This document shows positions 12,579 to 55,560 of a stretch of DNA of 62,710 nt, in pieces (position 1 is the first letter of the stretch; the number at the start of each line of letters is the position of its first letter). Origin of the DNA: a virus. The stretch covers positions 1 to 62,710 of the IMG/VR virus record IMGVR_UViG_3300009285_005054; one strand, written 5' to 3'. A program made the translations under genes and the position numbers. The notes under the pieces are model-generated. The model ran no database searches. It worked only from the letters and a program-made list of their open reading frames with translations, and was not told where the DNA came from.

Positions 12579-14792
12579 ATGCGCCAGAACACCCAGTGGG
12601 AGATGGACCGATTCTCGTTGGGGCTCCACCTTGAGCCGGGCTTCAACAATGCGGACCGCTACACGCTTGAAGAGGCCGTCAACGTGGAGATCTCAGAGGA
12701 TGGGTCGGTTGTTCCTCGAAAAGGGTGCCGACGCATCATGCACTCGTGGACGATCACGTCGGCCAACGAAATGCTCGTTGCGGACATTGACGGAATCCAG
12801 ACGATTCTCCTGAGTGAGATCAACCCAACCTTCGGCAGCGTTGGAAAGTACGGTGTCGGAGTTCATGCTCTGGTGGGCGGCACCATCGTCAACACCGGCG
12901 GCACCGTGGGCTCAGGACTTCTTTCGTACAAACGTGGCACGGGGACATGGAACATCGAGTCGGGGCCTGGCTGGCGGTTCCTACGCTATCGGAACAAGGC
13001 GTACATCACCAGCGGGGATCCTCGGTATGCCGATATGGGGGCCACGAAGCCCATTATGATCGGTGGGATGTACCGCTGGTCATGGTTCCGAAGCGACTCT
13101 GTAAGCGGGCGGTTGGCAGACGATTGGGGCCCGGACGGCATTCAACGTTTACTCGATGCAGACGCGACGTTGGACGCGCCGACCATGCGGGCAGTTCCTT
13201 CGGAGCTTGCGGCACTCTACTCACACAGACGAATCCCTCAGATCATTCTCGATGCGGGAGCACGCCACCTTCGCCGGACAATGCTCCCTCGCCACTGGGA
13301 GGAGCCAGTATCCGCAGTCACGTTGTCGTCGCCTGGAGGGACCCCCGGACTGGTCAAAGGGAAGTACTTCTATGCGATCACCTACGTTCGTCTAGACTCC
13401 CTTGGAGAGTCGGAGTCCTACTGGTTGGACGTGACGATCCCGGAGGACTCCTCTGAAACAGACGCGAGGAACTACTCCGCGCAGATCGTGGACATCCCTA
13501 CGCACCCGGACTCGACGGTGGACCTCGTGCGCATCTATCGGAACGTGAGCCCTGAGTCTACCAGTATGAGGATCTTGGCAGAGTTTCCAAATGGCACCGC
13601 GTCCTACACGGACAACGGCAAGGAACTCGCCGCCGACGAACCTCTGTTCGAGTACAGCCCCCCGCCGGCGGCGCATGTGATACATGCGCATAACGGGCGC
13701 ATCTTCGTAGCAGGGACAACGACCTCCGGCCTTGCGGTCTTCTGGTCAGCCAAGGGGGAACCGGAGAACTTCGATCTTGGTAGAGACTTCATGGTGCTCG
13801 ACGCGCAGCTTGGCGTTCGGGCGGAGGCGATGGGGTCCACCGGCGTCGAGGCGACGACGGAAGATTACAGCGGCTCTTTGCTCCTCTTCACGCCGACGAG
13901 CGTGAGTGTGCTGCATGGAGATCCTCCGGACGTCGTCCACCAGGTCCTCTCGAACGAAGTCGGCTGTGTTGCCTACCGAACGGTTCGGTCCTTCGAGGGG
14001 AGGTGCTTTTGGCTTGCGAAGGATGGCGTCTACGCGAGTGATGGGAAGAACCTCGTGCGCATCTCCGAGCCGAGTGTGTGGAGCAAGGGCAACATCGCGC
14101 CGCGCATCAAGGGGGTGCCGGCGACCACGCTCAAAGACGCCTGTGCGGAAGTCTCTGAGGCAAAGTACTGGCTCGCTCTCCAAGACTCCCGTGGCATCAA
14201 GACGGTCTACGTATTCGACATCATCAAGGGCCTCTGGACGGAGCACGACTACCCGTTTGACATCGTGGCGTTCAGCAACTACCGCACCAAGCAAGGCGAC
14301 TACCTACTCTACGCACTCTCCTCCGGGGCCAAGGGGTTCCTGCTCAACGTCGGGGATCGAGACGAGGATGAGAATGGGACGACGACGAACATCACCATTC
14401 GAGCGCGGCTCAACGCGAACTGGTTTGGCAACAAGGCGCAGTTGAAGCACTTCCGGCTGGTGCATCTCGGGGTGCAGCGGAACACTGCCTTCACGTTGAA
14501 GACGTTCGTCGACAACGCGGGGTTACAAGAGTTCAGGACTACCGGCTCGCCGAAGCTATCCTACGCCCAGACGCAGAAGAGCGAGACGACGTGGGGAAGT
14601 GGATGGAAGTGGGATGATGGCACGACATGGGTGGATCGAGGAGTTCAAAGGACTCTCACGGTTCCTCTGGATATACTGCATCAAGGACGCAATCTCCGCT
14701 TGGAAATCCAAGCGACGAACTACTTGAAGCTGAACAGCCTGAACGTGGAGTTCCGGCGTGGGCGGCAGGGCGCGCTTCCAGGGCAGGGGTAA
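12579..14792 (+). CDS. Putative tail nozzle / beta-propeller stabilisation protein
   Basis: The 737-residue protein begins one base after the adaptor stop. Its N-terminus (EPGFNNADRYTLEEAVNV, then VPRKGCRR) resembles podoviral tail tube/nozzle proteins, which list a 'collection of N and G, R-x-G' strand near the start. Repeated W/F-G and DG-x-Y elements (HNGRIFVAG, VFWSAKGEPENFD, WLAKDGVYASDGK, LWTEHDYPF) suggest propeller blades. It would form the distal tail channel. It could alternatively be a gp10-like plug protein. Confidence 0.6.
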   Translation: MRQNTQWEMDRFSLGLHLEPGFNNADRYTLEEAVNVEISEDGSVVPRKGCRRIMHSWTITSANEMLVADIDGIQTILLSEINPTFGSVGKYGVGVHALVGGTIVNTGGTVGSGLLSYKRGTGTWNIESGPGWRFLRYRNKAYITSGDPRYADMGATKPIMIGGMYRWSWFRSDSVSGRLADDWGPDGIQRLLDADATLDAPTMRAVPSELAALYSHRRIPQIILDAGARHLRRTMLPRHWEEPVSAVTLSSPGGTPGLVKGKYFYAITYVRLDSLGESESYWLDVTIPEDSSETDARNYSAQIVDIPTHPDSTVDLVRIYRNVSPESTSMRILAEFPNGTASYTDNGKELAADEPLFEYSPPPAAHVIHAHNGRIFVAGTTTSGLAVFWSAKGEPENFDLGRDFMVLDAQLGVRAEAMGSTGVEATTEDYSGSLLLFTPTSVSVLHGDPPDVVHQVLSNEVGCVAYRTVRSFEGRCFWLAKDGVYASDGKNLVRISEPSVWSKGNIAPRIKGVPATTLKDACAEVSEAKYWLALQDSRGIKTVYVFDIIKGLWTEHDYPFDIVAFSNYRTKQGDYLLYALSSGAKGFLLNVGDRDEDENGTTTNITIRARLNANWFGNKAQLKHFRLVHLGVQRNTAFTLKTFVDNAGLQEFRTTGSPKLSYAQTQKSETTWGSGWKWDDGTTWVDRGVQRTLTVPLDILHQGRNLRLEIQATNYLKLNSLNVEFRRGRQGALPGQG

Positions 14793-15378: not shown

Positions 15379-16011
15379 ATGCCAATCCCCGCTGCCATAC
15401 CTATTGGGCTTGCCGCTCTCAATGTAGGTGTGGGTCTATACGGCCTTCTCAAAGGCGACCCGTACAAACGCACCTACAAGGAAGCGGGAGCGACGGCGGC
15501 GCGTCTCGAACAGGCGATGGCACATTCCGTCATGCGTCGGCTCGGGGGCGAACTGGACCCCATGGCACGGGCGGAACTCCAGCGCGCCCTCGAAAGCGAG
15601 CGCTCCACGCAGCAGGCGACGGAACGTCAGATCGAACGCGGCATCACCCGACGTGGCCTCCGCGGGTCCGGGCTCTTCGACGCCTCTCAGATGCGCACAC
15701 GGAGAGAGTTCATCCAGCGGCAGGCGGCATTGCGTGCGGGTGTGGAGACTCGGTCGAGGGCGGCCGCGGAAGGCGCGGCAATGGGAATCGCGCAGCAACA
15801 GCGGAATGTGGAGACGCAGTTCAGAACTCTGGCGCTGGCACGGCAGCAAATGTACCTCAACCTGATCGGCGCAGGCGCGAAGCTCTACCAGTCGAATCAG
15901 GAGTTTGAGCAGTTCTCGAAGCTGCTTGGCGAGGAGCAGCCGATTGTACCCCGGTACGGGGAGCCGGAATGGCTGACACCACCAAGACGGGATATTTACC
16001 GCCAAGGATGA
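15379..16011 (+). CDS. Putative internal virion (ejection) protein, 210 aa
   Basis: A hydrophobic N-terminal segment (AAIPIGLAALNVGVGLYGLL) is followed by a long, charged, Ala/Arg/Gln-rich helical body. This is the form of small ejection proteins that insert into the host envelope. It precedes two much larger internal-type proteins. Its last 43 bp overlap the next gene. Confidence 0.55.
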   Translation: MPIPAAIPIGLAALNVGVGLYGLLKGDPYKRTYKEAGATAARLEQAMAHSVMRRLGGELDPMARAELQRALESERSTQQATERQIERGITRRGLRGSGLFDASQMRTRREFIQRQAALRAGVETRSRAAAEGAAMGIAQQQRNVETQFRTLALARQQMYLNLIGAGAKLYQSNQEFEQFSKLLGEEQPIVPRYGEPEWLTPPRRDIYRQG

Positions 16012-19000
16012 ATAACGCAGACACCATAGCCGGGATTCTCGCCGAGATCGGGAACGCGGTTTCTGAGGGCAACACCAGACGTAAGGATGACCTGGTGCGT
16101 GCGATGCAGATCCGCGTTGCGAAGCAGCAGGAACAAGGTCTCAAGATTCAGAACAGGCGTCTTGCAGCAGAGACGGAATCGTTCTTCCGAATGCTTCCTG
16201 ACGACGAGCGCCGTCAAGCAGCAGAGGCCCACTACAAAACCGTAGCGTTCGCGCAACAGTCGAAGGACCTGGAGCTTCAAGATGAGCTTCTGAAACAAGT
16301 GGAGGTCATGGATCGACTGGGCACGTTGAAGGATCCGAACCTACGTGCCTTCTTGGACAACAGACGTGGTGTTATGGCTGCCCGCCAAGCCGCTGCTACC
16401 GCGGGCGCAACAGAGGCGGGCGCTGCCCTGACCAATGAGCAGGCGACCCAACTTCGTGATGCCAACGCGATTCTCAAAGCAACCCAGGCAGTCCGCATCA
16501 AAACCGCAGAAGCAGTGTCCCGTGGGGAACTCTCTGTTGCAGAGGCGCAGGAACTTGTCCTGACGGACTTGGCAGGACGCATCAAGACGGGCCTGCCAGA
16601 GATCTGGGAGAAGCTGGGGGACCAGGGGCTCAATGAGCAACAGAAGTTCTTGGAGAGGATGTACCGAGGACTCGGAGGGGACATCGAGCGACAAAAATCC
16701 CTAGCAGACATCGGGGCAACCATCGCTGGAACGGAGGCCACTCTTGCTGGAGCAGTGGCCACTCGTGCCGGAGCAGCACTCACCGCCCAAGAGACGCGGG
16801 CAAAGCAGTACGCCAATGACCTCGTTGAGGCCTCACTCGATGATGACGCGACGACCGCTCAGATTCTTGGCGCCATGCGTTTGGACGAAGCGCAGCGAGC
16901 AGAGATGCTTGCCAAGATCGTGCGAAGACGAATTGACGCTGCGGGCCTTGAGGCTCTCCTGACTCCGGAGGAGTTGAAGGTCGTTGAAGACGATGCGATT
17001 TCCAGACTTACCGGATTTAGTGAAGGTGCTGCTCAGGCAAACCAAGTGCTCGGAAACACCGTGCAGTTCTTCACGGGATTTCAGAAGGCTACCGGAGCGT
17101 CTAGGACAGCACGAAATGCAACGACCAAAGCGAAGACTCGTGGCGACATAACAAGTCTATACGACGCAACAAGAACCCCTGGGACCGGGCAGGCCGGGCT
17201 ATTTAGTGGGAGCCCACGAGCGTTTACAACCTGGAATGACGCATGGAACGTTCTTCCCGAGGCGTACTCGACAGGGCAAGATTGGGTTGCTGAGAGTGAT
17301 GCTGCGGGAAGATTCTCAGAGGCGACCTTCTATCGTCAGATCAATGACTCCCAGTTTCACCAGCTTCTGAACAAGATCGAGATCGGTATCCCTGGGGAGG
17401 ACGCGACGACAAGGGCGCGGCAAGGCACAGACCTCATCATCCCGAACGAAATTGCAGACGCCGCTGGGCTGGGTAATGCCATCTCAGGAGATGGCGAACC
17501 TCTCGTAGTTCCTGGAACAGACGGAGAATCCTACAACTTGCCAGGGTATGCCCGCGTGAACGTTGAGGACTTCCAGAGTGCGATGCGTCTTCAGGCTGGT
17601 CAGCGTGACATGATGATGAACGCTGCCGCGGAATTGACCGACGCGGTATCCCAAGGGGCCGCCAATACCGAGATGCTCCAGAACTTCGTCTTCTCTGCCA
17701 TGGAGAACATGCTACAGATCCCTGGCGTCAGCCGAACCGCATACGGAAGAGCGCTGAATGCAATGGTCGGCGCGGCAAAGGGCGCAAGAGAGGCTACATC
17801 AATCCCAGGCGTCTCCGTCACCACCGAGGGTGCCGTGGGCGAGCTCCCGCCTGGAATAGTCCCCGAGGCATCTTATACTCCCGAGGAAGAAGCTGCTGCT
17901 GCTGCACGTAAAACAGAACTGGCCGAAGGTTGGGTCCTGGAAACAAGTGCAACGCAGGTTCTTGATGGGATGACTCATGCGGGAGATGCCTTTGGACAGA
18001 AGGTGCAGAATGCCTGGGGCGGAGAATCAACGGTTGTCGATGCCACCGCCACTGAGTTCGTCGTAAAGGATATCCGAACCGGAGAATCCTACAACATCCT
18101 AAAGAGCGGTGCGAAACTGTATGGCAGTGTTTTAGAGGCGCTCCCCGGCGGAGAGTTCTTCGCCAACATCGCTGCGGGGGTTGGTACCGGGCTTTTCAAC
18201 AAGAGGAAGGTAGCACAGATTCATGCAGAGAATAACGTATTGGCCATAAGAGGTGCCGTTAACTACCAAGAGGCTATTTCAGACGTGCTGTACATGGAGC
18301 CGTCAAGTGTAGAAGACGCCCAGCAGATATTGCTTGACATACTTTGGACAATGCGCAATAAACCCGAGGTAGGGGTTGGCCTATTGATGGGTTCTTCGGA
18401 TCAGTACAAGAATGAGATTGGCCGCTGGAGAATGTACCAACAGACACTAGAAGGTCAAGCGCTGGCGGCTGGTAAGGTGCCGCCCCCAACCGCGGAGCGG
18501 CCTATTGCTCCTAAGATCTTGAACGCGCTGAACAACAGGGCAGCCTTCGGGATCGCCATGAAGGTCAAGCAGATCTTTGCCCCCGGAAGTCCGGAGGGGA
18601 TTCTTCTTGACCGCGTGTTGAGGCTCTCACCTGAGCAACGGTACGAGGATTCGGTGCGACAGGAAGAGCGGGAATCAAGCACCGACCAAGTTGATCTCTC
18701 AGATGTTGGGCCTACCCGAGCCCCAGGGAAAGTCATGCCATCTACTGGTGGGATCTATTCCCCCGGCGAGTACCGTGAGGTCTCCGGGAAACTTCCCCCA
18801 GGCCCCGCAACCAAGGGAGCACGTCGTAGTCTAGTTAACGTCAGCATCGCCGCTCTTGAGGCCAAAAATGCTTGGGTAGATATGCAGGATACAGAAGCGA
18901 TACATCAACGAAACCAAAATCCTGCGGCACTGCGATATGTGCCACGCACAGGCATGAAAAAGGGGGAGGGCGGGTTTGCAAAGTTTGCAACCCCTATGGG

Positions 19001-19265
19001 TGGACTTTTTGAATTCCTTAAAACAGTCGAGGGTGGTGTACAACGAAACGATAACCTGGGGCAATTCATATTAAGCGTTCTTCCTCCAGGGGCGAGGCAG
19101 AAAGATGTTTACATTAATGAGGTTGCAGCAGAGGTAAACCGCCGAAGTGGAAAACAAGATATTGGACCATTTACACTAATATGGGAGATCGACCCAATAC
19201 TGTTGAGCCAGGTTATGTTATTGTCTCAAACCGGCTCTAAGTTGCAATTTGGAACAGAGCGCTGA
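15969..19265 (+). CDS. Large internal virion protein with P5-like C-terminal domain, 1098 aa
   Basis: The body is mostly helical and coiled-coil-like, with Ala/Gly-rich heptads (GATIAGTEATLAGAVATRAG). Residues ~979-1070 (NPAALRYVPRTGMKKGEGGFA, KFATPMGG, then NLGQFILSVLPPG) resemble the N-P-G-N-I-R phage structural domain (P5-like) seen in virion proteins and sometimes linked to cell-wall contact. ATG 15969 has GGGGAG six bases upstream; ATG 16008 (ATGA overlap) is the alternative. The DNA becomes AT-richer from about 18200, so the C-terminal third may be exchanged. It probably enters the host with the genome. Confidence 0.6.
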   Translation: MADTTKTGYLPPRMNNADTIAGILAEIGNAVSEGNTRRKDDLVRAMQIRVAKQQEQGLKIQNRRLAAETESFFRMLPDDERRQAAEAHYKTVAFAQQSKDLELQDELLKQVEVMDRLGTLKDPNLRAFLDNRRGVMAARQAAATAGATEAGAALTNEQATQLRDANAILKATQAVRIKTAEAVSRGELSVAEAQELVLTDLAGRIKTGLPEIWEKLGDQGLNEQQKFLERMYRGLGGDIERQKSLADIGATIAGTEATLAGAVATRAGAALTAQETRAKQYANDLVEASLDDDATTAQILGAMRLDEAQRAEMLAKIVRRRIDAAGLEALLTPEELKVVEDDAISRLTGFSEGAAQANQVLGNTVQFFTGFQKATGASRTARNATTKAKTRGDITSLYDATRTPGTGQAGLFSGSPRAFTTWNDAWNVLPEAYSTGQDWVAESDAAGRFSEATFYRQINDSQFHQLLNKIEIGIPGEDATTRARQGTDLIIPNEIADAAGLGNAISGDGEPLVVPGTDGESYNLPGYARVNVEDFQSAMRLQAGQRDMMMNAAAELTDAVSQGAANTEMLQNFVFSAMENMLQIPGVSRTAYGRALNAMVGAAKGAREATSIPGVSVTTEGAVGELPPGIVPEASYTPEEEAAAAARKTELAEGWVLETSATQVLDGMTHAGDAFGQKVQNAWGGESTVVDATATEFVVKDIRTGESYNILKSGAKLYGSVLEALPGGEFFANIAAGVGTGLFNKRKVAQIHAENNVLAIRGAVNYQEAISDVLYMEPSSVEDAQQILLDILWTMRNKPEVGVGLLMGSSDQYKNEIGRWRMYQQTLEGQALAAGKVPPPTAERPIAPKILNALNNRAAFGIAMKVKQIFAPGSPEGILLDRVLRLSPEQRYEDSVRQEERESSTDQVDLSDVGPTRAPGKVMPSTGGIYSPGEYREVSGKLPPGPATKGARRSLVNVSIAALEAKNAWVDMQDTEAIHQRNQNPAALRYVPRTGMKKGEGGFAKFATPMGGLFEFLKTVEGGVQRNDNLGQFILSVLPPGARQKDVYINEVAAEVNRRSGKQDIGPFTLIWEIDPILLSQVMLLSQTGSKLQFGTER

Positions 19266-22200
19266 TGGGATTCTGGGATTCCCCCTATCGAACCGCGCTT
19301 CCCGCCGCCCCTCACGCGGCGGCGCAGAGCCGTCGACGCGTGGAGATCTACGAAGTCGATCCCAAGATCCCCACCGATCCTTTCGAGCGCAGCATCGCCC
19401 GCCTGAAACGTCAGCAGCAAGAAGGACGTGACGGACTGTTCGGGAAGGTCCTTGAGCTCGTCATGCGCCTCGAAGCTCCGATGGCGGGGACGATTCACCG
19501 GAACTACCAGCAAGCAGTCAGCCGCGGGCACAAGCCGAATCTCGGCACATGGTTCGGGGCGCTTGCCGAAACCATTGCCGCCACCCCCGCTGGAATCCCG
19601 GCGGCGGCCGTGGCAGGTGGTGCGTTTGGTGGCCCTCCAGGAGCGCTGCTTGGATTGGGGATCGGCGCTGCAGCAAACGTGGCTGCGTTCGCCTATGATC
19701 CCAAGGAGTACCTCGCCAACATCCAGCAGATGCTCAAGGGCTATCGAGGATTGGTCCGCGCAGGAGATCACCCGGTTGACTTCGGTGCGACGCTTCAAGA
19801 GGCGGGCGTCCCGTTGGTCCCCTCGATGATTGGGGGCTTTGCACTCGCGATCCTCAACCCACTCGACCCCACGAACTATATCGGTTCCGGTGTCGTCAAG
19901 GGCGGAGCGAAGCTGCCATTGAAGATCTCCGGGCGTGTCCTGGATGATGGGCGCTTCATCCGAACAGCTTTTGGCGGCACCGATGAACTGGCCGCCGCGG
20001 CAGCAAAGACTGCGGCCCCCGAGGCCAAGATGGGGAAAGTGTTTGACCTGCCGTTGTCTCAGGCGGGGGCAAAGGCAAAAGCAGACATTGCGGCGAACTT
20101 CATGCGGAAGAAGATCGAGGCTCTTGGAGCGAAGAGCCCGGAGGAGTTGACTCAGTTCCTCGATGCCGCGCAGGGCAGGCTTTCGGAATCGATCAAGCAG
20201 CATGGCGCTCGTGGCGAAGAGTTCAACACCGCGTTTAGGACCTTCCTCGATGAGATGAAGCGCTTTGGTGGCGATACCCCAGCCTCACTCACTGCGATTC
20301 AGGAGTTCGGGCCGGAGGGCAAGGCGCTCATTGCGATGCAGCGGCCGGTCTACAACGCCATCGACACCTTTGAGAATCTTGGTGGGAAGAGCATTCGTCT
20401 GAAACGCACGCGCCTCGGACATGAACTCGCAGACGACGACGTTGTTGGGATGAAGCTCCGTCAGGCAGGCAAGATGGAGGACCTCGAAGAGTACCAGAAG
20501 GCGGTGCGCTGGCTCGAAGACCCGGAGCAGACCTTCAAGCACGTGATGGACCCGACGAAGTGGGACACGCCCATGCGGGACTACATCACGCTCACGCTCA
20601 ACGGGATTCTCCCTATCCCACGAGGCCGCCGCCCCTACATCTTCACTCCGTTCGAGGTTCCGTTGAGCCCCACGCTTTGGGGGAAGAAGTGGCGATTCGG
20701 GATCTACGGCTCCATCGGCGCAGCGTACGGCGGGGCGGCCATCGAGGCCGAGGATACCCCTCTCGAAGCTGCCAAGAAGGTCTTGATCAGCATGACTGCC
20801 GCTGGGCTGTTCGGCTCTCGTGCGCTACGAGATGCCGACCGAGGGCTTGCCCGAGCAGTTGTGGCGTTGCAGAACGGGATGAAGGTTCCGGTAGCGGAAG
20901 AAGCCAAGATCGACGCTGGGCTCATCCGTCGTTACGGATCCCAAGGTCTTGTTCAGATCGCGAAGGCTGGAGGACTCGTTCTAGGAACTCTCCAACAAGC
21001 CATGGGGTATTCCCTAGCCGCCGTAGGAGGAGAGGCATGGACGAACGTCGCTGCCAATCGGCCCCTTGTGAAGATGATTCGGCAGTGGGCGAAAGACTTG
21101 TCAAGTGCAGACGCCTTCAAGCAAATCGCGGCCTTTGAAGTTGCACGAGACATCGCCCGCGTCTACGACCTGATGGTGAAGATGGGCGTGCCTGTCGAGA
21201 AGATTGACGGCGCGAAGCTCTACCGAATTATGACGAACATCCTGGAGAGGAAACCAGTTGATCTCTGGAGAATCGCAAGAGAAGCCGCCGAAGCCCGTGG
21301 CGGAACGCCCGCCGACGTCATCACCCCCGGAACCGCTGAAGACGTTGGACCCATCGACGCCGCTACCCAGGCTCCCACACCAGAGCCGGCAACACCCGCA
21401 AGAGCTCCTGAAGGAGTAATGTCCGAAGAAGTCACACCGTCCGCTGAGGAAGTAGTGCCACCAACCCCCAGCGGAACTGCGGGACCCCAGCCCCCCGCAG
21501 GGGAGCCGCCGCTGACAGTTTCTACACCTCCGGTCCGTCCTCCTACGGAGGTGCTGATCGACGATCTGACCCCAGAGGAGACCCAAGAGCTCCTTGACGA
21601 GATGGTTCGTATCAATGAGGAACTGTCGGCAGGCGCGCTCCCACAACGTACTGTCGAGGACGCCCCGGAGCCTGTACAGACCTCCGTCGGCTGGATTCAA
21701 AAAACAAACCCGAAGATCGTTCTCGGATCCAAGACATCCATAAGGATTCCGGGCACTCGGGACATCCCTGCTCAGTACGCGTTGTTTGAGATTGAGGACC
21801 TCCGTGCATCTCATTCTCGTCTAGTCGACGGGCAGCTTGTACTTGGGGATGCGTACCTGCACAAATGGGGGTACCCGGGGGATCCTGACGCCCCCATGGG
21901 CGCACAGAACATCAACTCAACACGAGACTACGCCAATGATCCGGAGTTCCTGCGTCAGCTCGGCCAGCTTTTCGGTGTTGACCCCGCACACGCGGAGGCG
22001 TTCAACCCGGCGTTGGTGATCGACACGTCCATCACGCCAGAGACCGGCCCGGCGAGCATAGGCGTCTTTGAGGACAAGTCGGTTGTCCTTGGGGGAAGTC
22101 GACGAACCGCATACGAACAGAAGCTCTACGCCTCCGGTTCAGAAGCACACATAGAGCGCTACCTCAATCGGCTACGTGAGACACTACCCTCCGTTGGAAT

Positions 22201-25200
22201 TCAACCAGAGGCTCTTTCGGATTTCCGTCATCCTGTCTTGGGACGCCTGATGGATCGCACTCCGAGCTCGCCGTCAGAACTCCGCGCGCTAGCCTCCGAG
22301 CTGAACACTGTCGCTACCGCAGGTAGTAACGCCGTCAAGGAGATGGCTGCACGATTGGGCGGCCTCTCAATCCCCAAGATCAACGAGCTCACGGAGATCT
22401 TCGAGCAGCTTCCAGATGAAGGCGCATTGACGACGATCCTGCAATCGCCGCTTCCCGTGACGCGGAACCTCATCCGGTGGATGCGGGAGAACAACGTCCT
22501 TCGGCAGACGGAGCTCGGTGCGGCCCTCAAAGACTCGAAGGACGCCTTCACCGAAGCAGGTGCAATCCAGATCAAGAACATGCTTGAGGGGATGATCCTC
22601 AACGACGAGGCCGCACGAGCGCTCATGGGCGAGCGTGTGCGAGCGAGCTTAGGGATGATGAAGAGCTCCCGGCACATTCTTCGTGCTTCTCAGTCCGACC
22701 CCTTGTTTCTCAGCCGCCTGAACCAGGCACTGCGGCACTACAAGCTCTACACCGAATCCAGTCTTCCACTCCAGCAGTGGAAGAACGAACGCCTCGTCAC
22801 GGGCGGGACCAACTGGGACCAGCTCGAACGGGCTCAGAAGATCCTCTTCCACTACTTCGACGAGAACTCAACGGCGTCGAACCGATTCCAAGAGGGCTTC
22901 CAGAAGTACGCGGACTTCTGGCGTGCACAGGCAGGGGAGAAGGCTGCGCAAGCGCGCCTCTTCGACGTGCCGGAGACACAGAGTCCAGAGGTGGCATTTG
23001 AGGCCGCGTTCCAAACGAAGTCGGGTGCTACAGAACTTGGCGGGCTCGTCGGATCGGCGCGGGAGGAGTACGCACAGAACCTGCGGGCGGTTGTACGAGG
23101 AGAAGCCAGGACTCAATTTCAGAAGACGCTCCGGGCGGCATGGAAAGAAGACAAGCTGCCAACGCTTGCAGAAGAGCAAATTGAACCATTCCTGGAATTC
23201 TACGATGCGCTCGGACGGGGCGCGATGCGTGCTCGTCCAGACATGTTCAAGACCCTCGACGACTGGTACAAAGCCGTAGAACTTCAAGTCCCCGGCACTC
23301 AAATAAAGGGGGCTATAGCAGAGGTAACGTATGCCAACAAGACACTAGCTAGAATGACTTTCTACGCCAATGCTGACTTTAGCGCCCTGGTGCATGAGCC
23401 GGGGCACCTACTTAGAGACATACTTCCAGAGTACGATATAGACACGATATTCGATGTTTACGATGCCCTATCTAGGACCCGTCGCAAACGTCCTCTAGGA
23501 GAAGAACTTCGTAGAATAGTGCGTAGAGGCTCTGCCATTAATGCCTATGTACCAAGTGAATCAGACTGGAGATTCTTTGAAGAAAGCTTCGCCCGAGATC
23601 TGGAGCGTTATCTCGTCATCGGAAAGGCCCCCAATGACGAACTCAAACCTCTCTTTGAGAAGATCGCTCACTGGATGCGAGTAGAGGTAGAGATACTTGC
23701 CAAGATGTACGGATATGGCAAAGTGACGAAGCTTACCGCTAAGCAGGTGCCAGACGCCGCGACCCGCATCTTCCTGGAGGAGCTCCCGAACTTCAAGCTC
23801 AACCCACGCATCAAGGAGATTTTCGACCGATTCACCGGTGTTGGGGCAGAGGCACTCGGAGAGCCCAAGTTGTTCGACCAAGCTCTACAACGTGCTCCCA
23901 CCCGAGAAGAGCTCATTCGTCACTACGCCTTCGAGCACAACGTGAACGCCGCGCAGGCACAGGCCGCGCTCGATGGCCCGGACGAAGATATCGTTCAGTG
24001 GCTGGAGAGTTTCGCGGCTCAATATGGTGGCGCGGAGCACTTCTATGCGGCGAAGGCGAAGGTGTTTGAGAAGGTACCTGAGGCCGCTACGGGACCTGTT
24101 GCAACCAAGGGAGTGGTCGGCTTCTCAGTGCCTCGTGAGGAACTCGTAAAGCCACAACGACTTGAGGGCCCCACAGGAAAGATCGTGGAGATACCAGGGC
24201 TCGAGAATCCTGCCCCGGACATCATCTCAAATGCAAAAACTGGTGAACCAATCACGGTCTCAACAGTGCGTGGGTTTGGACGTGCGGAGGCCAATGCCCC
24301 GTACAGCCCTGGAATGCCAGGCGCAGTCCTTGGCCCCGCTCGGTACTCTGCGATCAACTTGGAAGCAGCACAGGAGTTCGGGCCAAACATTGAGCGCCTA
24401 GAAGTCACCCTACAGAATCCGCTGGTGATCTCAACCGACGCACAGTGGGCTGATCTTCTTGCGTCGACCGGCGTGAAGGTGACTCGGCCAGAGGACATCC
24501 TGTTTGCTGCGGCGGAAGAACGCGCTGCCTTGGTGTCGGCTGTCCGACAGCAGCTTGAGCAGATCTACGATGGCGTGATCGTCAATGTACCACAATTCAC
24601 CGATAGCTACCCCGTGGGCACACGCAACTCTATAAAGCGGCTTCGGGAGTGGTTCGGCGATACGCAGGTCATTGAGTTCAGCCCGCCGCCCAGGGAACAA
24701 TTGCGTATCCGCGAGGGCTTTGACGACGCCCGCCAGTTGAACAACGCCCAGAAGAACATGAACCAGCAGGAGGGCGCCAGCGTCGTGAAACGTGAGTCCG
24801 GGTTTGTGACGCGCAACAGGGTCGATCCCGAAGCCTACAAGGACACCGTCTCTATGGCAGGAGGCTACTTCGAGGACGCACGGATGCAGGGCGATGTGAC
24901 ACCTCCCAACGTCCTCGCCGCCGCCATGACAAACGACGCAATCAGGATGGTGATTGCAAGAGCGATGGGCGTCAGCGTCAACGCAGAGGAAATCACCTCG
25001 AAGTTTCTTCAGGATACTGCCGAGTCCGTAGGGTTAGGAAGTGAGCTCATGGACCTGATCAAAGCCGCTCGGAAGGAATTCGGGATCGCCGACGATACCG
25101 AAGACCTGCTGCTCGGGTACGTAGCGCCGCTCTTAGGTATTCGGCACGGATACCGCGCACTGCACATGCAGGAGCAGTTCTTCGGAATCGGGACCGCCGC

Positions 25201-28200
25201 CTTCGAGAGCGAGATGATCCACTACAGCCACCTGCTGTTTGACGACCGCGCCCGGGCACATCTGTCCGGGCAGGGCTTCATGGAGCCCCTTCACAAACGC
25301 TGGCAGAAGATCGGAGTCTTTGCACCGTTCTCGTTGAGACGGCAGTTCCGACCGCAGTTCATGCTCGTCGACGCCCGATTCGCACGTCCAGGAGAACTTG
25401 GACAGCCCACCGGGCTGATGCTCGATGAGGCGATAATTCCGTTCGACGACGACTCGATCCAGTTGTTCCTCGATCCCGAGAAGCTGATGAGTGCTGCGGA
25501 GGCCCTTGCGCAGAAGGACGGCGATCTGCGCACGATGTTCAGGATGTCGCTCCCTGACGGAGAGACGGAAGAATCCCTGCTCAAAGCAGACAGCTACTTC
25601 CGCCCACGGATGTCCTCGCAGACCGTCCGATACAAGGATCAGGACTGGTACGTGCTGGAGCTCCCGGCGAGCGATACCCCCATGACCGTCAAGAACGCGC
25701 TCTACCGTAGTGGGACACTCCGGCTGGATACGATGGAAGATGCGCTCAAGCTGACGCCCGAGGCGCTTGCTGAGGCTTACCCCGGGATGAAGCCGAGAGT
25801 GGTGAAGTCCCTTCGAGGAGAACCACTCTACGTTATGGATCCCGCACTCTCCTTCGCCGCACGGCAAGCAAGCAGCAAGAAGGCGGTGCTGACCGCCGAC
25901 CTGCTCAACTGGACGATGAGCAATCCCACGCATAGTGTGCCGGCGATGACGAGCTCTCCTGACGACTGGGTACAAGACCTCGCCGTTCTGCTAGGCAAGG
26001 ATTTCGACGACAAACGCTCCGTTGCAAGCCTGATGAAAAACTACGTTCTCGCCCACGCCGGCGGTGGGAACACGTACTTCGTCGTGAAGCGGCCGAAGCC
26101 CTTGTCGGCGCCATCCTCTGAGATCGTCGACCTCTCCGACGTGTTCGAGTTCCGCAACTGGAAGGGGATAGACCCCGAAGAGGCTGCGAAGCGGCTCGGT
26201 GCAACCCCGGACGACGTCACGAAGTGGCTTGAAGATGATGGGACGCTTGGGGGGCGTCACCAATTCGTCTACATCAAACGCGACGCGGAGGGGAAGCGAC
26301 ACCGGTGGACTGGATGGGATGACCAGAAGAAGCACGCCGGCCCACAGCATCGGCTACGTGACGATCAGGTTCAGGACATGATGAGCTATCGGCAGGTCAA
26401 GTCCATCCTCGACGACCCCGACGCCACAGATGCTGCACGAGAAGGTGCCGAGCGGGCGCTTCGGATACGGTCGAGCGCCATTCGAGATCCCGAGTCGGCA
26501 CGGCTCCTCGACTACGCTCACAAGGCGTACATGAGCCCAGGGCAGCGGTTCCGAGGCATCGGACGGAACTTCTGGCAACGGTACACGGAGCTCTCCCGAG
26601 AGACCAACCCAGAGACGGGAGAATGGCTTCGTACTCGCAAGGCAGCATGGAACGAGGCCATCGAAGAGCTCAAGCAAGTCTACGACGTGGACAACTTCTT
26701 TAAGGAGCCTGGTGCCCTTGCTATGGCGGGGTTCGAGACGCTTTCCTCGATGTGGGCGAGGCTCACCATCGCGGGTTGGCCTAACTCCCGTGTTCGGGAC
26801 CTTGTCGGGAACACGTTCATGCACACGCTGGGCGGGATGCACTTCTTAGACCCCGACGCGATGGACAGTACCATCCAGGCCGGCATGATGCTGCGTGGGA
26901 ACAAGGTCAACGTCACACTCAACGGAATTCAACATACGACCGAAGACACCATCCGAAGCGCCCGCGGCCACGCGCTTGTCAGCTCCCTCACTGGAACTGA
27001 CGCGGCTCTTGACGAAGGCTGGGAAGCACTCCAGCAGACCGTATACCGGGATGTGCCGCACAATCCAAGAGAGTACATCGACCAAACGCTCTTCGGTGTC
27101 GTTCGAGACGCTGCGGGGAAGAAGCGACATTTCGTCGGCATGAACCCCACGACCGGAATCTTCTACCGTAACGTCCTGATACCAGCCAGCGCGGGCGCTC
27201 TCGGAGGAGCGACACTCGAACAAGGAGATGCAGAGGAACGTGCCAGAGCAGCCTTGAAGGGCGCTGCTCTTCTCGGCGGGCTTGGGACGTTCTTCGGAGT
27301 TGCTCGACTTGCCGCTGGACGCGCCGGCAACCGGTTTAGCATGGGGAGTGTGGACTTCCACAACGCCGCACGCACGAACCGGTGGGTCCACGAACCCTAC
27401 GCTGGTGCCGACTCTGGGTACACCTACTATGTGCGTCGTGTCAGTCAGAACGCGGAAGACATACAACGGCTCGCCTACTGGCTCTTCCTTCGGAAGAAGG
27501 GCTTCAATGAGGCGGACGCCGCACGCAAGGTGCATGACACGATCTTCTCCGCGGCCTCCGTTCCACAGGGGTGGCTAAAGTATCGAAAGTTCATGCCGTT
27601 CATGCGGTGGACGGCGTTCAACGTGCCGAATCAGTTCCGTGGCCTACTCGAGAATCCGAGGATGATGTTCCGCGTCGCGCGTGGTGTCGGCGAGATGCAG
27701 AACAACTACGACGTGAGCGACCGTCGGTACATACCGGAGTTCGTCCAAGGGCAGCCACACATCGCATGGGCGAAGGACCCGAAGACGAATGAGGGCAAGT
27801 ACTACGTCCTCGGCAACTGGCTTCCGCAGGCGGACCTACTCCAATGGCTCGACCCGGCACACTTGGATCGAACCGTTTTGGGAATGATTACGCCGGTCCT
27901 CATGGAAGGCTTCCAGCAGGCCGCCAATCGAGACTTCTACTTCGAGAGGCCCATCGACAAGCTCGATACACGTGGTGGTGGAGGGATGCAGGTCGAGCAG
28001 TTCGCCGGGTTCGATGTGAAAAGTCGCGTCAAGCACTTCCTCGGCACTTCGTTCCGCTTCCTGAAGGAGGTCAACAACGTCTCTCAGGGGGACCCGTTCC
28101 GCTTCCTCGAATCCCGAGCAGCCGAAACGGAACGTCGACATCGGGAGAAGCAACTCGACTTCCGAGAGGTGCCGCGGTGGAACACCATTACGCTGATACA

Positions 28201-28621
28201 GAAACTCAGTACCTCGGGCTTCGGTTACATGCCGCGTTCGTACGAGTTCGGAGAGGATCGTCAGAAGCGGATAGTCGTGCGACGCATCCAGGACACCGTG
28301 AGTCAAGCACGGCAAATCGAGCGTCGGGCGAGCTACCTCACTTCGCCTGCAACGAGACGCGCACAACTACGGGAGGTTCTTTCGCCGTTCTTCAAGCACA
28401 TTCCAGGGTTCCGCACCACGCCGACCTCAGTGATGACGCCCGGGGACATTCGTCAGCTTCATCGCATGATGGAGAAACTCGACGAGACGCAAGAAGAACG
28501 GCGCCCCCGAAGGAGCGCCGCCCCTGAGAAGTCCGAGAAGCCTGCAGTCAGAACGGAACGTCGTCGTCGTCCACCGGCGGAATCGCCGACGCCTTCTCCT
28601 TCAGCGCCGCCGTCTCCATGA
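19265..28621 (+). CDS. Giant polyvalent internal virion protein, 3118 aa (ParB-like, metallopeptidase, ART-like, LPD38-like)
   Basis: It overlaps the previous stop by 1 bp. Visible regions in order are: Gly/Ala-rich hydrophobic segments (~105-143 and ~476-517); a Pro/Thr-rich linker (~690-810); a DdrB-like ParB domain (~814-946, with FEIEDLRASHS and VVLGGSRRTAYE); a zincin-type peptidase with HEPGH at 1377-1381 and a downstream FFEESFARDLERYL helix near 1440; an ADP-ribosyltransferase-like region (~1655-1810, ARYSAINLEAAQEFG ... NPLVIS ... YDGVIV); and an LPD38-like C-terminal part (~2640-2810, GALGGATLEQGDAEE, then FMPFMRWTAFNVPNQF). These are known parts of phage 'polyvalent proteins', which are injected with DNA to counter host defence. 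I see no RNA polymerase motif of the N4 type. Domain calls are from memory of family patterns. Confidence 0.75.
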   Translation: MGFWDSPYRTALPAAPHAAAQSRRRVEIYEVDPKIPTDPFERSIARLKRQQQEGRDGLFGKVLELVMRLEAPMAGTIHRNYQQAVSRGHKPNLGTWFGALAETIAATPAGIPAAAVAGGAFGGPPGALLGLGIGAAANVAAFAYDPKEYLANIQQMLKGYRGLVRAGDHPVDFGATLQEAGVPLVPSMIGGFALAILNPLDPTNYIGSGVVKGGAKLPLKISGRVLDDGRFIRTAFGGTDELAAAAAKTAAPEAKMGKVFDLPLSQAGAKAKADIAANFMRKKIEALGAKSPEELTQFLDAAQGRLSESIKQHGARGEEFNTAFRTFLDEMKRFGGDTPASLTAIQEFGPEGKALIAMQRPVYNAIDTFENLGGKSIRLKRTRLGHELADDDVVGMKLRQAGKMEDLEEYQKAVRWLEDPEQTFKHVMDPTKWDTPMRDYITLTLNGILPIPRGRRPYIFTPFEVPLSPTLWGKKWRFGIYGSIGAAYGGAAIEAEDTPLEAAKKVLISMTAAGLFGSRALRDADRGLARAVVALQNGMKVPVAEEAKIDAGLIRRYGSQGLVQIAKAGGLVLGTLQQAMGYSLAAVGGEAWTNVAANRPLVKMIRQWAKDLSSADAFKQIAAFEVARDIARVYDLMVKMGVPVEKIDGAKLYRIMTNILERKPVDLWRIAREAAEARGGTPADVITPGTAEDVGPIDAATQAPTPEPATPARAPEGVMSEEVTPSAEEVVPPTPSGTAGPQPPAGEPPLTVSTPPVRPPTEVLIDDLTPEETQELLDEMVRINEELSAGALPQRTVEDAPEPVQTSVGWIQKTNPKIVLGSKTSIRIPGTRDIPAQYALFEIEDLRASHSRLVDGQLVLGDAYLHKWGYPGDPDAPMGAQNINSTRDYANDPEFLRQLGQLFGVDPAHAEAFNPALVIDTSITPETGPASIGVFEDKSVVLGGSRRTAYEQKLYASGSEAHIERYLNRLRETLPSVGIQPEALSDFRHPVLGRLMDRTPSSPSELRALASELNTVATAGSNAVKEMAARLGGLSIPKINELTEIFEQLPDEGALTTILQSPLPVTRNLIRWMRENNVLRQTELGAALKDSKDAFTEAGAIQIKNMLEGMILNDEAARALMGERVRASLGMMKSSRHILRASQSDPLFLSRLNQALRHYKLYTESSLPLQQWKNERLVTGGTNWDQLERAQKILFHYFDENSTASNRFQEGFQKYADFWRAQAGEKAAQARLFDVPETQSPEVAFEAAFQTKSGATELGGLVGSAREEYAQNLRAVVRGEARTQFQKTLRAAWKEDKLPTLAEEQIEPFLEFYDALGRGAMRARPDMFKTLDDWYKAVELQVPGTQIKGAIAEVTYANKTLARMTFYANADFSALVHEPGHLLRDILPEYDIDTIFDVYDALSRTRRKRPLGEELRRIVRRGSAINAYVPSESDWRFFEESFARDLERYLVIGKAPNDELKPLFEKIAHWMRVEVEILAKMYGYGKVTKLTAKQVPDAATRIFLEELPNFKLNPRIKEIFDRFTGVGAEALGEPKLFDQALQRAPTREELIRHYAFEHNVNAAQAQAALDGPDEDIVQWLESFAAQYGGAEHFYAAKAKVFEKVPEAATGPVATKGVVGFSVPREELVKPQRLEGPTGKIVEIPGLENPAPDIISNAKTGEPITVSTVRGFGRAEANAPYSPGMPGAVLGPARYSAINLEAAQEFGPNIERLEVTLQNPLVISTDAQWADLLASTGVKVTRPEDILFAAAEERAALVSAVRQQLEQIYDGVIVNVPQFTDSYPVGTRNSIKRLREWFGDTQVIEFSPPPREQLRIREGFDDARQLNNAQKNMNQQEGASVVKRESGFVTRNRVDPEAYKDTVSMAGGYFEDARMQGDVTPPNVLAAAMTNDAIRMVIARAMGVSVNAEEITSKFLQDTAESVGLGSELMDLIKAARKEFGIADDTEDLLLGYVAPLLGIRHGYRALHMQEQFFGIGTAAFESEMIHYSHLLFDDRARAHLSGQGFMEPLHKRWQKIGVFAPFSLRRQFRPQFMLVDARFARPGELGQPTGLMLDEAIIPFDDDSIQLFLDPEKLMSAAEALAQKDGDLRTMFRMSLPDGETEESLLKADSYFRPRMSSQTVRYKDQDWYVLELPASDTPMTVKNALYRSGTLRLDTMEDALKLTPEALAEAYPGMKPRVVKSLRGEPLYVMDPALSFAARQASSKKAVLTADLLNWTMSNPTHSVPAMTSSPDDWVQDLAVLLGKDFDDKRSVASLMKNYVLAHAGGGNTYFVVKRPKPLSAPSSEIVDLSDVFEFRNWKGIDPEEAAKRLGATPDDVTKWLEDDGTLGGRHQFVYIKRDAEGKRHRWTGWDDQKKHAGPQHRLRDDQVQDMMSYRQVKSILDDPDATDAAREGAERALRIRSSAIRDPESARLLDYAHKAYMSPGQRFRGIGRNFWQRYTELSRETNPETGEWLRTRKAAWNEAIEELKQVYDVDNFFKEPGALAMAGFETLSSMWARLTIAGWPNSRVRDLVGNTFMHTLGGMHFLDPDAMDSTIQAGMMLRGNKVNVTLNGIQHTTEDTIRSARGHALVSSLTGTDAALDEGWEALQQTVYRDVPHNPREYIDQTLFGVVRDAAGKKRHFVGMNPTTGIFYRNVLIPASAGALGGATLEQGDAEERARAALKGAALLGGLGTFFGVARLAAGRAGNRFSMGSVDFHNAARTNRWVHEPYAGADSGYTYYVRRVSQNAEDIQRLAYWLFLRKKGFNEADAARKVHDTIFSAASVPQGWLKYRKFMPFMRWTAFNVPNQFRGLLENPRMMFRVARGVGEMQNNYDVSDRRYIPEFVQGQPHIAWAKDPKTNEGKYYVLGNWLPQADLLQWLDPAHLDRTVLGMITPVLMEGFQQAANRDFYFERPIDKLDTRGGGGMQVEQFAGFDVKSRVKHFLGTSFRFLKEVNNVSQGDPFRFLESRAAETERRHREKQLDFREVPRWNTITLIQKLSTSGFGYMPRSYEFGEDRQKRIVVRRIQDTVSQARQIERRASYLTSPATRRAQLREVLSPFFKHIPGFRTTPTSVMTPGDIRQLHRMMEKLDETQEERRPRRSAAPEKSEKPAVRTERRRRPPAESPTPSPSAPPSP

Positions 28622-29060
28622 GGAACGTGAGGTTCGGGCTCGTGCGACGCCACGTCTTCCCATCCCGGCCGGGTGTCTCCTTCGTGTAGTGCGTGAGTTC
28701 GACGACGACGTGCTTGCCCTCCAGGTCGTTTTGGATGACGTCGAAGGCGTCCCGCCCCATCATGTTGATCTGCGCTGCGGCGAAGAGCTCGTCCCACTTG
28801 AAGTTCGCCCCCAGCCCGATTGCGGAGTTGAACTCCAGCGTCTTCCAGTCGCCGTCAAGCACACGGAAGAACAGCAGGCAGTACGCCTTGCCGGTGTGCG
28901 CGCTGCCGTCGATCTCCCCGCCGATGATCTGGAGCGTGTACTTCCCCTCCGGTGGCAGGAACTCCCCCTGCTCGTCCGTCGGGTAGTTCTTCGGCGCATG
29001 GGCGGTGTTGAAGTCCTCGATCTGTGCATCAGTCAGGTTGTCGCCGATCTTGAACGGCAT
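28548..29060 (-). CDS. Putative single-stranded DNA-binding protein
   Basis: The 170-residue protein starts at MPFKIGDNL (an upstream frame extension looks non-coding). It ends in DDDDVPF, the acidic, Phe-terminated tail by which SSBs recruit partners. The central beta-rich part (PPEGKYTLQIIGGEIDG ... HVVVELTHYTKET) resembles DUF669-type phage ssDNA-binding proteins. It is last in the leftward operon, and its 3' end overlaps the giant virion gene antisense by 74 bp. Confidence 0.65.
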   Translation of the reverse strand: MPFKIGDNLTDAQIEDFNTAHAPKNYPTDEQGEFLPPEGKYTLQIIGGEIDGSAHTGKAYCLLFFRVLDGDWKTLEFNSAIGLGANFKWDELFAAAQINMMGRDAFDVIQNDLEGKHVVVELTHYTKETPGRDGKTWRRTSPNLTFLMETAALKEKASAIPPVDDDDVPF

Positions 29061-29061
29061 C

Positions 29062-29400
29062 TCAGGCCCCTTCCTCGTGCGATGTCGGTGCCGACTCGGG
29101 TTGGTTTGTGAACAACACCGCCTGCCCGGTGTCCTCCTCTGCTTGTTTGCGGGCTTGGGCGAGATGTTCGAGTACATCGTCCTCCACAGCCTTCAGGACG
29201 GCGGGAGATGGGTCAGTCTGGGTGATCTTCACTGTGCCAATCGGATTGCCCCCAGCGTCCCACTGAAAGGCTTCCGCGCACTCCTCACGGTAGATGTCGG
29301 ACATGCGATGCAGGAACCAGCGGATCGCCTTCTCGTGGATCCGGTCGCTGCCTTCCAGCTTCACCTTGACGGTGAGCGTTGTCTCAGAGTTCGTCTTCAT
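29062..29400 (-). CDS. Hypothetical protein, 112 aa
   Basis: I do not recognise it. The start at 29400 (MKTNSETT) is preferred over 29409 because GGAGG then has normal spacing of 9 bases. It is acidic, with an alpha/beta character. It lies one base upstream of the SSB-like gene and overlaps the resolvase-like gene, so it probably serves DNA replication or recombination. Confidence 0.6.
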   Translation of the reverse strand: MKTNSETTLTVKVKLEGSDRIHEKAIRWFLHRMSDIYREECAEAFQWDAGGNPIGTVKITQTDPSPAVLKAVEDDVLEHLAQARKQAEEDTGQAVLFTNQPESAPTSHEEGA

Positions 29401-31935: not shown

Positions 31936-32439
31936 TCACCGAATCACAAGCGCCTTCGACTCCTCGATGTGCGCGCCCGGGACCGTGCCACCTTCCTTGA
32001 TCGCCTTCCCGATCTCGCTCTTCGCGGGCTCCCGAGTCACACGCCAGTAGAGCTCCGGGATCCGTCTCTCGTCGTCCACCATGACGCTCTCTGTTCGCAT
32101 CGTGTAGAGCGTCGCGACGAGTGTCTTCACCTTCTGGAGGCCCAGCACGTCGAACGCGAGCAACAGCCGACGCCGAAGTCCCTTCCTCGACCGCTCGATG
32201 GACGCCCCCCGCTTGGACAGCGGCTCAATGAGCGCGTACAACGCTGCCAAGTCGGCCGCCAGCATCTTGTCGATGCGCGCGTAGGCATCGCACTTCGCCT
32301 CGAACGGCTCCTTCGCCGACTCGTCGAACTCGGCGATCAGCTTGTCCAGCTCCTCGTCAGTCTCAGCCCCGTCCACCAACCTCTCCATGAAGTCGGCGTA
32401 GTTCTTCGCCAGTTCAAGCAGCGTCTTCTTCTCACTCAT
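31936..32439 (-). CDS. Siphovirus Gp157-like protein
   Basis: The 167-residue protein has a helical N-terminal half and the family's end pattern: VATLYTMRTESVMVDDE, then IPELYWRV, then GGTVPGAHIE. In PF05565 the ending reads 'G-x-x-V-P-G-A'. Gp157 proteins are common in phage replication/recombination operons and were linked to phage resistance in streptococci when cloned. Its start overlaps the upstream stop (ATGA). Confidence 0.8.
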   Translation of the reverse strand: MSEKKTLLELAKNYADFMERLVDGAETDEELDKLIAEFDESAKEPFEAKCDAYARIDKMLAADLAALYALIEPLSKRGASIERSRKGLRRRLLLAFDVLGLQKVKTLVATLYTMRTESVMVDDERRIPELYWRVTREPAKSEIGKAIKEGGTVPGAHIEESKALVIR

Positions 32440-33924: not shown

Positions 33925-34623
33925 TTATAACGTGGTGGGTTGCAGTAGTGGTGCCACGTCAATCTCATCGACGACGGTGCAGCGGCGGACACGGAGTTTA
34001 CCATCGGACATCAGCGGGATCGCCACGATGTCTGCGGGCTCAACCGTGACACGTAGGACGCGGTAGCCCTCTGACCATTGCTTTAGGCACCACTGGAGCG
34101 TGCCAAGGTTGATCCCTGCGCCACAGCCGTGCGTTTCGTCGGTGTCGTAATCAGCGATTTCAACCACGTGGCCCACGGCATAGGTGATCCCGCCGTCGTA
34201 GATGCCCTGTCCATCGGCATTGACGAGTCCGAACAGGGTGACTGGTGTGGCGCTCATTCGTAGCGCGTACAGTGGTTGTGTCTTGTACGGCGTTATGCCT
34301 ATCGCGCCGGCGAGGTCCGCATCGGTGAGGTACGCATCGGTGAGGTACGCATCGGCGAGGTACGCGCCAGTTAGGTCCGCGCCGCGGAGGTTCGCGCGGG
34401 TGAGGTACGCGCCGCGGAGGTACGCGCCGCGGAGGTTCGCGTCGGTGAGGTACGCGCTGCGGAGGTTCGCGTTGGTGAGGTTCGCGTTGGTGAGGTTCGC
34501 GCCGGCGAGGTACGCGCCAGTTAGGTCCGCGCCGCGGAGGTCGATCTTCTCGCTCGTTGCGCTCCGCCAGGTATTCCACTCGCTGACGGATCGCCGCAGC
34601 ATGTCGTACTGGGATTGGTTCAT
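33925..34623 (-). CDS. Pentapeptide-repeat protein with DUF5758-like C-terminus
   Basis: Residues ~27-105 are about sixteen A(D/N)LxxA-type pentapeptides (GADLTGAYLAGANLTNANL), which fold as a right-handed quadrilateral beta-helix. The C-terminal half (VTLFGLVNADGQG, then ADYDTDETHGCGAGINLG, then SDGKLRVRRCTVV) matches the pattern I know as DUF5758. Such proteins occur in many phages. Some pentapeptide proteins mimic DNA and inhibit gyrase, but there is no specific evidence for that here. It precedes DnaN's gene product in the operon order by lying just downstream. Confidence 0.8.
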   Translation of the reverse strand: MNQSQYDMLRRSVSEWNTWRSATSEKIDLRGADLTGAYLAGANLTNANLTNANLRSAYLTDANLRGAYLRGAYLTRANLRGADLTGAYLADAYLTDAYLTDADLAGAIGITPYKTQPLYALRMSATPVTLFGLVNADGQGIYDGGITYAVGHVVEIADYDTDETHGCGAGINLGTLQWCLKQWSEGYRVLRVTVEPADIVAIPLMSDGKLRVRRCTVVDEIDVAPLLQPTTL

Positions 34624-55410: not shown

Positions 55411-55560
55411 AGTAGCCCTCATTGAGAGGTAGCCAACGTCGCGCTCCAAGGACGACGCTGACTGAAATAGAATGTCGCAAGTGTACACCAGGACGGCGGT
55501 TGCCGCAAGGGGCCGATGTGCGGTACGGTGTAGGTACCCGACACGGCGAAGGGGGATTGA

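What the first reader, a model, noticed from the sequence alone, without database searches (positions are those of the whole stretch)
19265..28621. 3118-residue polyvalent protein in the internal-virion position
One reading frame of 9.4 kb combines a DdrB-like ParB domain, an HEPGH metallopeptidase, an ART-like region and an LPD38-like end. These are known building blocks of proteins injected with phage or conjugative DNA to resist host defence. That it is encoded just after ejection-protein genes supports virion packaging. Long unassigned parts (about 946-1377 and 1860-2640) may hold new domains.
Basis: partly seen in the sequence, partly recalled or inferred. Interest (0 to 1): 0.72.

Follow-up and report, generated by a model that had tools for sequence, protein, structure and literature searches.

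The report
Giant cysteine-free phage injected-protein candidate
A virus of bacteria encodes one 3118-residue protein that joins a DNA-related domain and a protein-cutting enzyme domain and contains no cysteine at all, which fits a protein packed in the virus particle and pushed into the host with the DNA; the kind is known, this member is very divergent and its middle and end remain unassigned.

Summary
The 3118-aa frame is real. No Pfam family fits it above cut-off, and tblastn at E 0.01 found no relative in 50,697 phage records. A DdrB-like ParB domain (about 820-1023) scores 11.4 bits against the P1 DdrB family; the best of 300 shuffles scores 1.3. A zincin metallopeptidase (about 1361-1475) has H1377, E1378, H1381 and E1440 invariant in 81-83 aligned rows. 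The ART-like and LPD38-like calls are inconclusive. The span 946-1377 begins inside ParB; 1860-2640 stays unassigned. Virion delivery is supported by gene order shared with two environmental podoviruses, by Bcep22-like JC1, whose giant protein in the same place is in virions, and by cysteine exclusion: the protein and its two upstream neighbours have 0 Cys in 4426 residues, against 1.04% in the other proteins examined; P22 gp7/gp20/gp16 (0/1309) and N4 vRNAP (0/3500) behave alike. Cysteine loss was already in print for N4-type polymerases. I file it as a new, very divergent polyvalent protein.

The parts
19265..28621 (+). 3118-aa polyvalent protein, 0 Cys
21332..21664 (+). proline-rich linker before the ParB domain (aa about 690-800)
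   Evidence: 34 Pro in aa 601-900; read from the translation
21722..22333 (+). DdrB-like ParB domain, aa about 820-1023; D937, G944, R947 and Y966 align with conserved family positions
   Evidence: HMM 11.4 bits against 1.3 best of 300 shuffles; hhalign 79%, score 49.6 against 26.4 best of 60 shuffles; alignment A2
22835..22975 (+). possible match to the helical extension that follows ParB in the DdrB family (aa 1191-1237), colinear
   Evidence: weak: score 19.3, 2 of 100 shuffles higher; second hit
23345..23689 (+). zincin-like metallopeptidase, aa about 1361-1475: HEPGH 1377-1381, third ligand E1440, D1385
   Evidence: AF2 pLDDT about 63-93 over most of it, with one block of 47 at aa 1420-1429
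24842..27184 (+). unassigned, aa 1860-2640
   Evidence: no family or relative; single-sequence AF2 not informative
27431..27634 (+). possible LPD38-like segment (aa about 2723-2790) near the C-terminus; inconclusive
15969..19265 (+). 1098-aa neighbour, Cys-free, candidate ejection protein; no family match
15379..16011 (+). 210-aa neighbour, Cys-free, candidate ejection protein
12579..14792 (+). tail-hub or stabilisation protein (internal virion / Hc3-type profiles), anchor of the gene order
   Evidence: phrog_511 9.6e-10, phrog_578 2.6e-4

Best explanation
A polyvalent protein of a short-tailed phage with a P22-type portal and head. Made late, it is packed into the head with two ejection proteins (genes 15379 and 15969) and leaves through the portal and tail as one poorly folded chain that carries no cysteine, so it cannot be trapped by disulphides on the way. 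Its internal zinc metallopeptidase then cuts the chain, in the head or after entry, and frees the N-terminal part with the DdrB-type ParB domain and the C-terminal parts. The ParB part acts on DNA or nucleotides at the start of infection, most simply to protect the incoming genome as the P1 Dar system does. Shown here: the frame, the two domains, intact catalytic residues, gene order, zero cysteine. Inferred: packaging, ejection, self-cleavage, and the anti-restriction role.
For: ParB: 11.4 bits; best of 300 shuffles 1.3; 9.9 against 3.2. Peptidase: hhalign 94.6% with two podoviral relatives, phmmer about 1e-9, 113 of 204 candidate stretches in viral contigs encode a relative, catalytic residues invariant in 81-83 rows. 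Gene order as in ctype202 and ctCJ8213: stabilisation protein, small genes, SLT-domain protein, then a protein of about 2480 residues with ParB followed by peptidase. JC1 gp69 (4515 aa, last virion gene, 51 unique peptides in CsCl virions) and P1 DdrB (39 unique peptides, head) are virion proteins (passages and tables). Cysteine: 0 of 4426 in the three genes against 92 of 8822 in 27 other proteins examined, binomial 7e-21; off-frames of the giant gene's DNA hold 87 and 112 Cys codons. P22 gp7/gp20/gp16 0/1309, N4 vRNAP 0/3500, JC1 gp69 0/4515.
Against: No direct evidence of packaging, cleavage or function. The two upstream neighbours were counted in the Cys block after their counts were seen; for the 3118-aa protein alone the same rate predicts about 32 Cys. 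Proteins of 300-660 aa without Cys occur elsewhere too: P22 scaffold and GtrB, N4 MCP and gp57, JC1 gp64, a ctype202 fibre, a Y3 protein. Not all polyvalent proteins are Cys-free: P1 DarB has 9 in 2255. The canonical ParB motif GNGR is GSRR here. Eight records with the closest or related major capsid proteins (seven fetched whole, one nearly) carry neither this ParB nor this peptidase by profile.
Confidence: 0.72

Rival explanations
1. Mainly structural: a giant ejection or conduit protein that helps the DNA across the envelope (like P22 gp16/gp20/gp7), with the ParB and peptidase domains as relics or assembly aids, not effectors.
For: It sits where P22 places its ejection genes, shares their Cys-free composition, and P1 DdrB is described as helping DarB into the capsid.
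Against: It is far larger than P22 gp7, gp20 and gp16 (229-609 aa); the peptidase active site is fully conserved, unlike a relic.
Confidence: 0.2
2. A virion-delivered polymerase-type giant like N4 vRNAP, with the enzyme hidden in the unassigned middle.
For: Same size class, zero Cys (0/3500 in N4 vRNAP); Iyer et al. describe a metallopeptidase in N4 vRNAP.
Against: No RNA polymerase family in Pfam or PHROGs scans of the whole protein or of pieces.
Confidence: 0.03
3. Not a virion protein: a late protein that acts in the producing cell.
For: No proteomics exists for this phage.
Against: Total Cys exclusion over 3118 residues, gene order, JC1 and P1 precedents.
Confidence: 0.05

Closest known systems
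Polyvalent proteins of podoviruses ctype202 (MW202473) and ctCJ8213 (MW202738), annotated 'crystallin beta/gamma motif-containing protein'
   Same: Same gene order; ddrB-ParB followed by the same peptidase; 0 and 1 Cys in 2480 and 2476 aa
   Different: 24% identity over the peptidase region only; they have an N-terminal LPD22 match (one of the two above Pfam's cut-off), not found here; the window protein is about 640 aa longer
Bcep22-like giant 'DarB-like' protein, JC1 gp69
   Same: Last gene of the virion module, giant, Cys-free, in virions
   Different: Lytic transglycosylase-like, methylase and helicase domains and a clear LPD38; no ParB by PF18763; no significant alignment with the window protein
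P1 DdrB
   Same: ParB domain family; head protein; Iyer et al. place a metallopeptidase in it
   Different: 995 aa; Pfam ddrB-ParB matches clearly while the window protein is below detection by that model
N4 virion RNA polymerase
   Same: Giant Cys-free protein delivered from the virion
   Different: No polymerase detected in the window protein

Membership tests
Polyvalent proteins (Iyer et al. 2017) | at least two domains of disparate activity in one polypeptide | tested here: met
   ParB and zincin peptidase in one frame
Polyvalent proteins (Iyer et al. 2017) | phage type: encoded among late virion genes | tested here: met
   terL, portal, MCP and Hc3-type genes on the same strand
Polyvalent proteins (Iyer et al. 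2017) | carried in the virion and injected | not testable with these tools
   indirect only: Cys exclusion, precedents
DdrB-like ParB domain | Pfam PF18763 above its cut-off | tested here: not met
   no match in the window at E <= 10
DdrB-like ParB domain | profile homology to the P1 DdrB family over the ParB domain | tested here: met
   11.4 bits, 300 shuffles at most 1.3; hhalign 79%, 49.6 against 26.4
DdrB-like ParB domain | conserved Arg, Asp/Asn at end of strand 2, helix with conserved Tyr | tested here: met
   R947 and Y966 invariant in 8 of 8 rows; D937 aligned with the family Asp in the HMM alignments; GNGR itself is changed to GSRR
Zincin-like metallopeptidase of polyvalent proteins | HExxH and downstream Glu | tested here: met
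   H1377, E1378, H1381, E1440 invariant in 81-83 rows
Zincin-like metallopeptidase of polyvalent proteins | zincin fold | tested here: inconclusive
   AF2: two strands, HExxH helix and Glu helix mostly at pLDDT 75-93; best VIA-align Z 5.8 to a zincin-like domain; Foldseek in PDB not significant
ART-PolyVal (PF18760) | profile match | tested here: not met
   Pfam none; own profile no hit in the region; hhalign with 31 rows aligns 12 columns
ART-PolyVal (PF18760) | His-Tyr-Asp active site | tested here: inconclusive
   no alignment reliable enough to place the residues
LPD38 (PF18857) | profile match above cut-off | tested here: not met
   none in the window; own profile 0.9 bits at 2723-2755, 2 of 300 shuffles had a higher domain score
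LPD38 (PF18857) | C-terminal position as in its eight reference proteins | tested here: inconclusive
   best match of the LPD38 profile lies near the C-terminus; hhalign 24.8 against 21.5 best of 60 shuffles
N4-type virion RNA polymerase | single-subunit RNA polymerase domain | tested here: not met
   no polymerase family in Pfam/PHROGs scans

The most novel reading that the evidence does not exclude
Cysteine exclusion is a general mark of everything a phage ejects, polyvalent effectors included, because these chains cross the tail and the periplasm unfolded. If so, the ejected cohort of any uncultured phage can be read from sequence alone, the window protein travels as one 3118-residue chain together with its two upstream neighbours, and its unassigned 1860-2640 part is a new injected domain.
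Probability: 0.4. Interest if true: 0.72.

Novelty: new member of a known kind. Interest (0 to 1): 0.45.

Why it matters
Giant injected proteins are a poorly understood part of phage infection, and many are called only from position. Here a homology-free sign, total loss of cysteine over thousands of residues, agrees with position and with two domains, and it also holds for proteins known to be ejected (P22 gp7, gp16, gp20; N4 vRNAP). That makes a plain test possible on many uncultured phages, and it narrows where new injected domains should be sought in this protein (aa 1860-2640 and the first 690 residues).

Tried and rejected
Searches that found no relative: whole protein in viral contigs and genome contigs, C-terminal part in viral contigs, the upstream structural gene, tblastn in phages in two overlapping parts at E 0.01 and of the C-terminal and ParB pieces at E 10, chance-level hits only, PDB sequences. 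ParB scans in viral contigs: no pattern with 8 rows, then 96 stretches and no confirmed relative with 4 rows. The one genome-contig hit for the peptidase is Desulfovibrio sp. A2; it shares the peptidase and has LPD22, which the window protein lacks. Residues 801-3118 matched none of 50 records found through the major capsid protein (no positive control rang).

LPD22 at the N-terminus: rejected. Regex for an LPD38-like motif in 350 large frames: nothing useful. AlphaFold: aa 1330-1900 with 33 relatives, mean pLDDT 58, only the peptidase well predicted, ART region about 34-74; aa 1880-3070 alone, mean 36, not usable. Foldseek PDB: no match at E <= 0.001. BFVD: one match at E <= 0.001, an unnamed viral protein A0A516LSB4_2 at 4.7e-5 with TM 0.19. 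VIA-align listed the N-terminal domain of anthrax lethal factor at Z 5.8 as best; I take it as a common fold only and fetched nothing of it.

In two alignments the ParB rows were drawn onto peptidase columns; these alignments were discarded and the two ParB rows dropped before prediction (34 of 36 rows).

Is the cysteine idea in print? For N4-type polymerases yes (passages). For ejection or polyvalent proteins in general my searches returned 0 papers; one search (any 3 of 4 terms) returned 31, of which I saw the 8 listed titles and abstract starts; none was on this. Subscription papers are not held, so this is weak evidence of absence.
Full report
The frame. Window 19265..28621 (+) is one open frame of 3118 aa from an ATG. 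It begins on the stop codon of the gene before it (TGATG) and ends a long plus-strand late module. The window is itself a virus record of 62,710 bp. The module holds a terminase large subunit, a P22-type portal (PF16510 at 1e-42), a major head protein (phrog_9953 at 1e-34) and an Hc3 or internal-virion type protein. The nearest named major capsid protein by E-value is that of Myxococcus phage Mx9, 24% identical. The best match in viral contigs is 26% identical. The host is unknown.

ParB. Pfam's ddrB-ParB model does not match, so the claim was tested with own profiles. A profile grown from P1 DdrB (16 proteins) scores the window protein at 11.4 bits; the best of 300 shuffles scores 1.3. A separate six-sequence profile gave 9.9 against 3.2. 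Profile against sequence with hhalign gave 79% and a score of 49.6 over aa 820-1023; the best of 60 shuffles scored 26.4. R947, G944 and Y966 fall on invariant positions of an eight-row alignment, and D937 on the family Asp; the usual GNGR is GSRR. A second, colinear match puts aa 1191-1237 on the helical extension that follows ParB in P1 DdrB. It is weak: 2 of 100 shuffles score higher.

Peptidase. PHROG 9880 (7e-7), hhalign 94.6% with two podoviral relatives and phmmer near 1e-9 agree on aa 1361-1475. A scan of viral contigs gave 204 candidate stretches, of which 113 encode a relative and 80 were kept. In the resulting alignment H1377, E1378 and H1381 are invariant in 81 rows and E1440 in 83. 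The scan patterns did not include these four residues, so their conservation was not selected for. The Asp three residues after HExxH that Iyer et al. describe for a phage clade (section read) is D1385, invariant in the first three-row alignment; the strand-2 His of the same clade is not evident. AlphaFold predicts the peptidase core mostly at 75-93 pLDDT, with a low loop at 1420-1429.

ART and LPD38. An ART-PolyVal profile does not hit the region, and hhalign with 31 rows aligns only 12 columns around YDGVIVN, score 20.7 against 17.6 best of 60 shuffles. The LPD38 profile (nine rows from eight proteins) finds its best place at aa 2723-2755, where that domain would be expected, but with 0.9 bits, below 2 of 300 shuffles by domain score; hhalign gives 24.8 against 21.5 best of 60. 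Both are leads, not findings.

Gene order. In ctype202 and ctCJ8213 (podoviruses from Manatee Spring) a stabilisation protein is followed by small genes, an SLT transglycosylase-domain protein and a polyvalent protein of about 2480 aa, with ParB at about 740-856 and the peptidase near 1120-1297. The window has a matching order with genes at 12579, 14796, 15379, 15969 and 19265. P22 itself has its ejection genes 7, 20 and 16 downstream of gene 10. In Burkholderia phage JC1 the 4515-aa giant is the last virion gene and was found in CsCl-purified virions with 51 unique peptides (passages and tables). P1 DdrB was found in virions with 39 unique peptides and is listed as head (one table). Of eight records with related capsid proteins that I read in pieces, none carries this ParB or peptidase by profile; one has an LPD38 fragment and one an ART protein, so such modules come and go.

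Cysteine. The protein has no Cys in 3118 residues, and its two upstream neighbours none in 1308. Over 27 other window proteins examined the rate is 92 of 8822, 1.04%; zero in 4426 has binomial probability 7e-21. The neighbours were put in the block after their counts were seen; the giant alone would be expected to hold about 32. The giant gene's DNA read in the two other forward frames gives 87 and 112 Cys codons, so base composition is not the reason. Yardsticks in the same call: P22 gp7, gp20, gp16 0 of 1309 against 1.32% in 36 other P22 proteins; N4 vRNAP 0 of 3500; JC1 gp67-69 0 of 5221; ctype202 block 3 of 3462; ctCJ8213 block 2 of 4057; Y3 block 0 of 4272. N4's gp51, gp52 and gp54 (3 Cys, all in gp54) and the small genes of the other phages were put in the blocks by position, by me. 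Seventy frames over 1500 aa that carry the peptidase have a median of 0.38 Cys per 1000 residues. That N4-type polymerases lack cysteine, and that this may serve passage through tail and periplasm, is in print (passages). I did not find the wider claim in three searches.

Working model. Late synthesis, packaging with the ejection proteins, exit through portal and tail, cleavage by the internal peptidase, action of the ParB part on DNA or nucleotides at the start of infection. The frame, domains, active-site residues, gene order and cysteine loss are shown. Packaging, ejection, cleavage and anti-restriction are inferred.

Verdict. A real, very divergent polyvalent protein; two of four domains confirmed, two open, one long stretch unassigned. 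New member of a known kind. The part of most general interest is the cysteine sign.

Noticed in passing
28548-29177 (-): Convergent 209-aa gene overlaps the last 74 bases of the giant gene; [quoted passage not shown] Pfam finds nothing.
   Followed up: partly
34655-35773 (-): Phage-encoded sliding clamp: DNA polymerase III beta domains, best 2.7e-18.
   Followed up: no
33925-34623 (-), 31936-32439 (-), 49515-50495 (+), 52876-55488 (-): Pentapeptide-repeat protein, Gp157-like protein, C5 cytosine methylase, and a primase-polymerase with D5-type helicase.
   Followed up: no
9469-11698 (+): A group 1 glycosyltransferase and an FkbM methyltransferase lie inside the virion module.
   Followed up: no
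2-121 and 473-592: 120-nt direct repeat, 83% identical, in and just before the gene at 28-969.
   Followed up: no
L209 (record G050, 1-573) and L213 (record G084, 54981-56378): Records with related capsid proteins carry an LPD38 fragment and an ART-PolyVal protein respectively.
   Followed up: no
L115 6614-13552: Desulfovibrio sp. A2 contig with a 2313-residue frame that has LPD22 and the same peptidase.
   Followed up: partly
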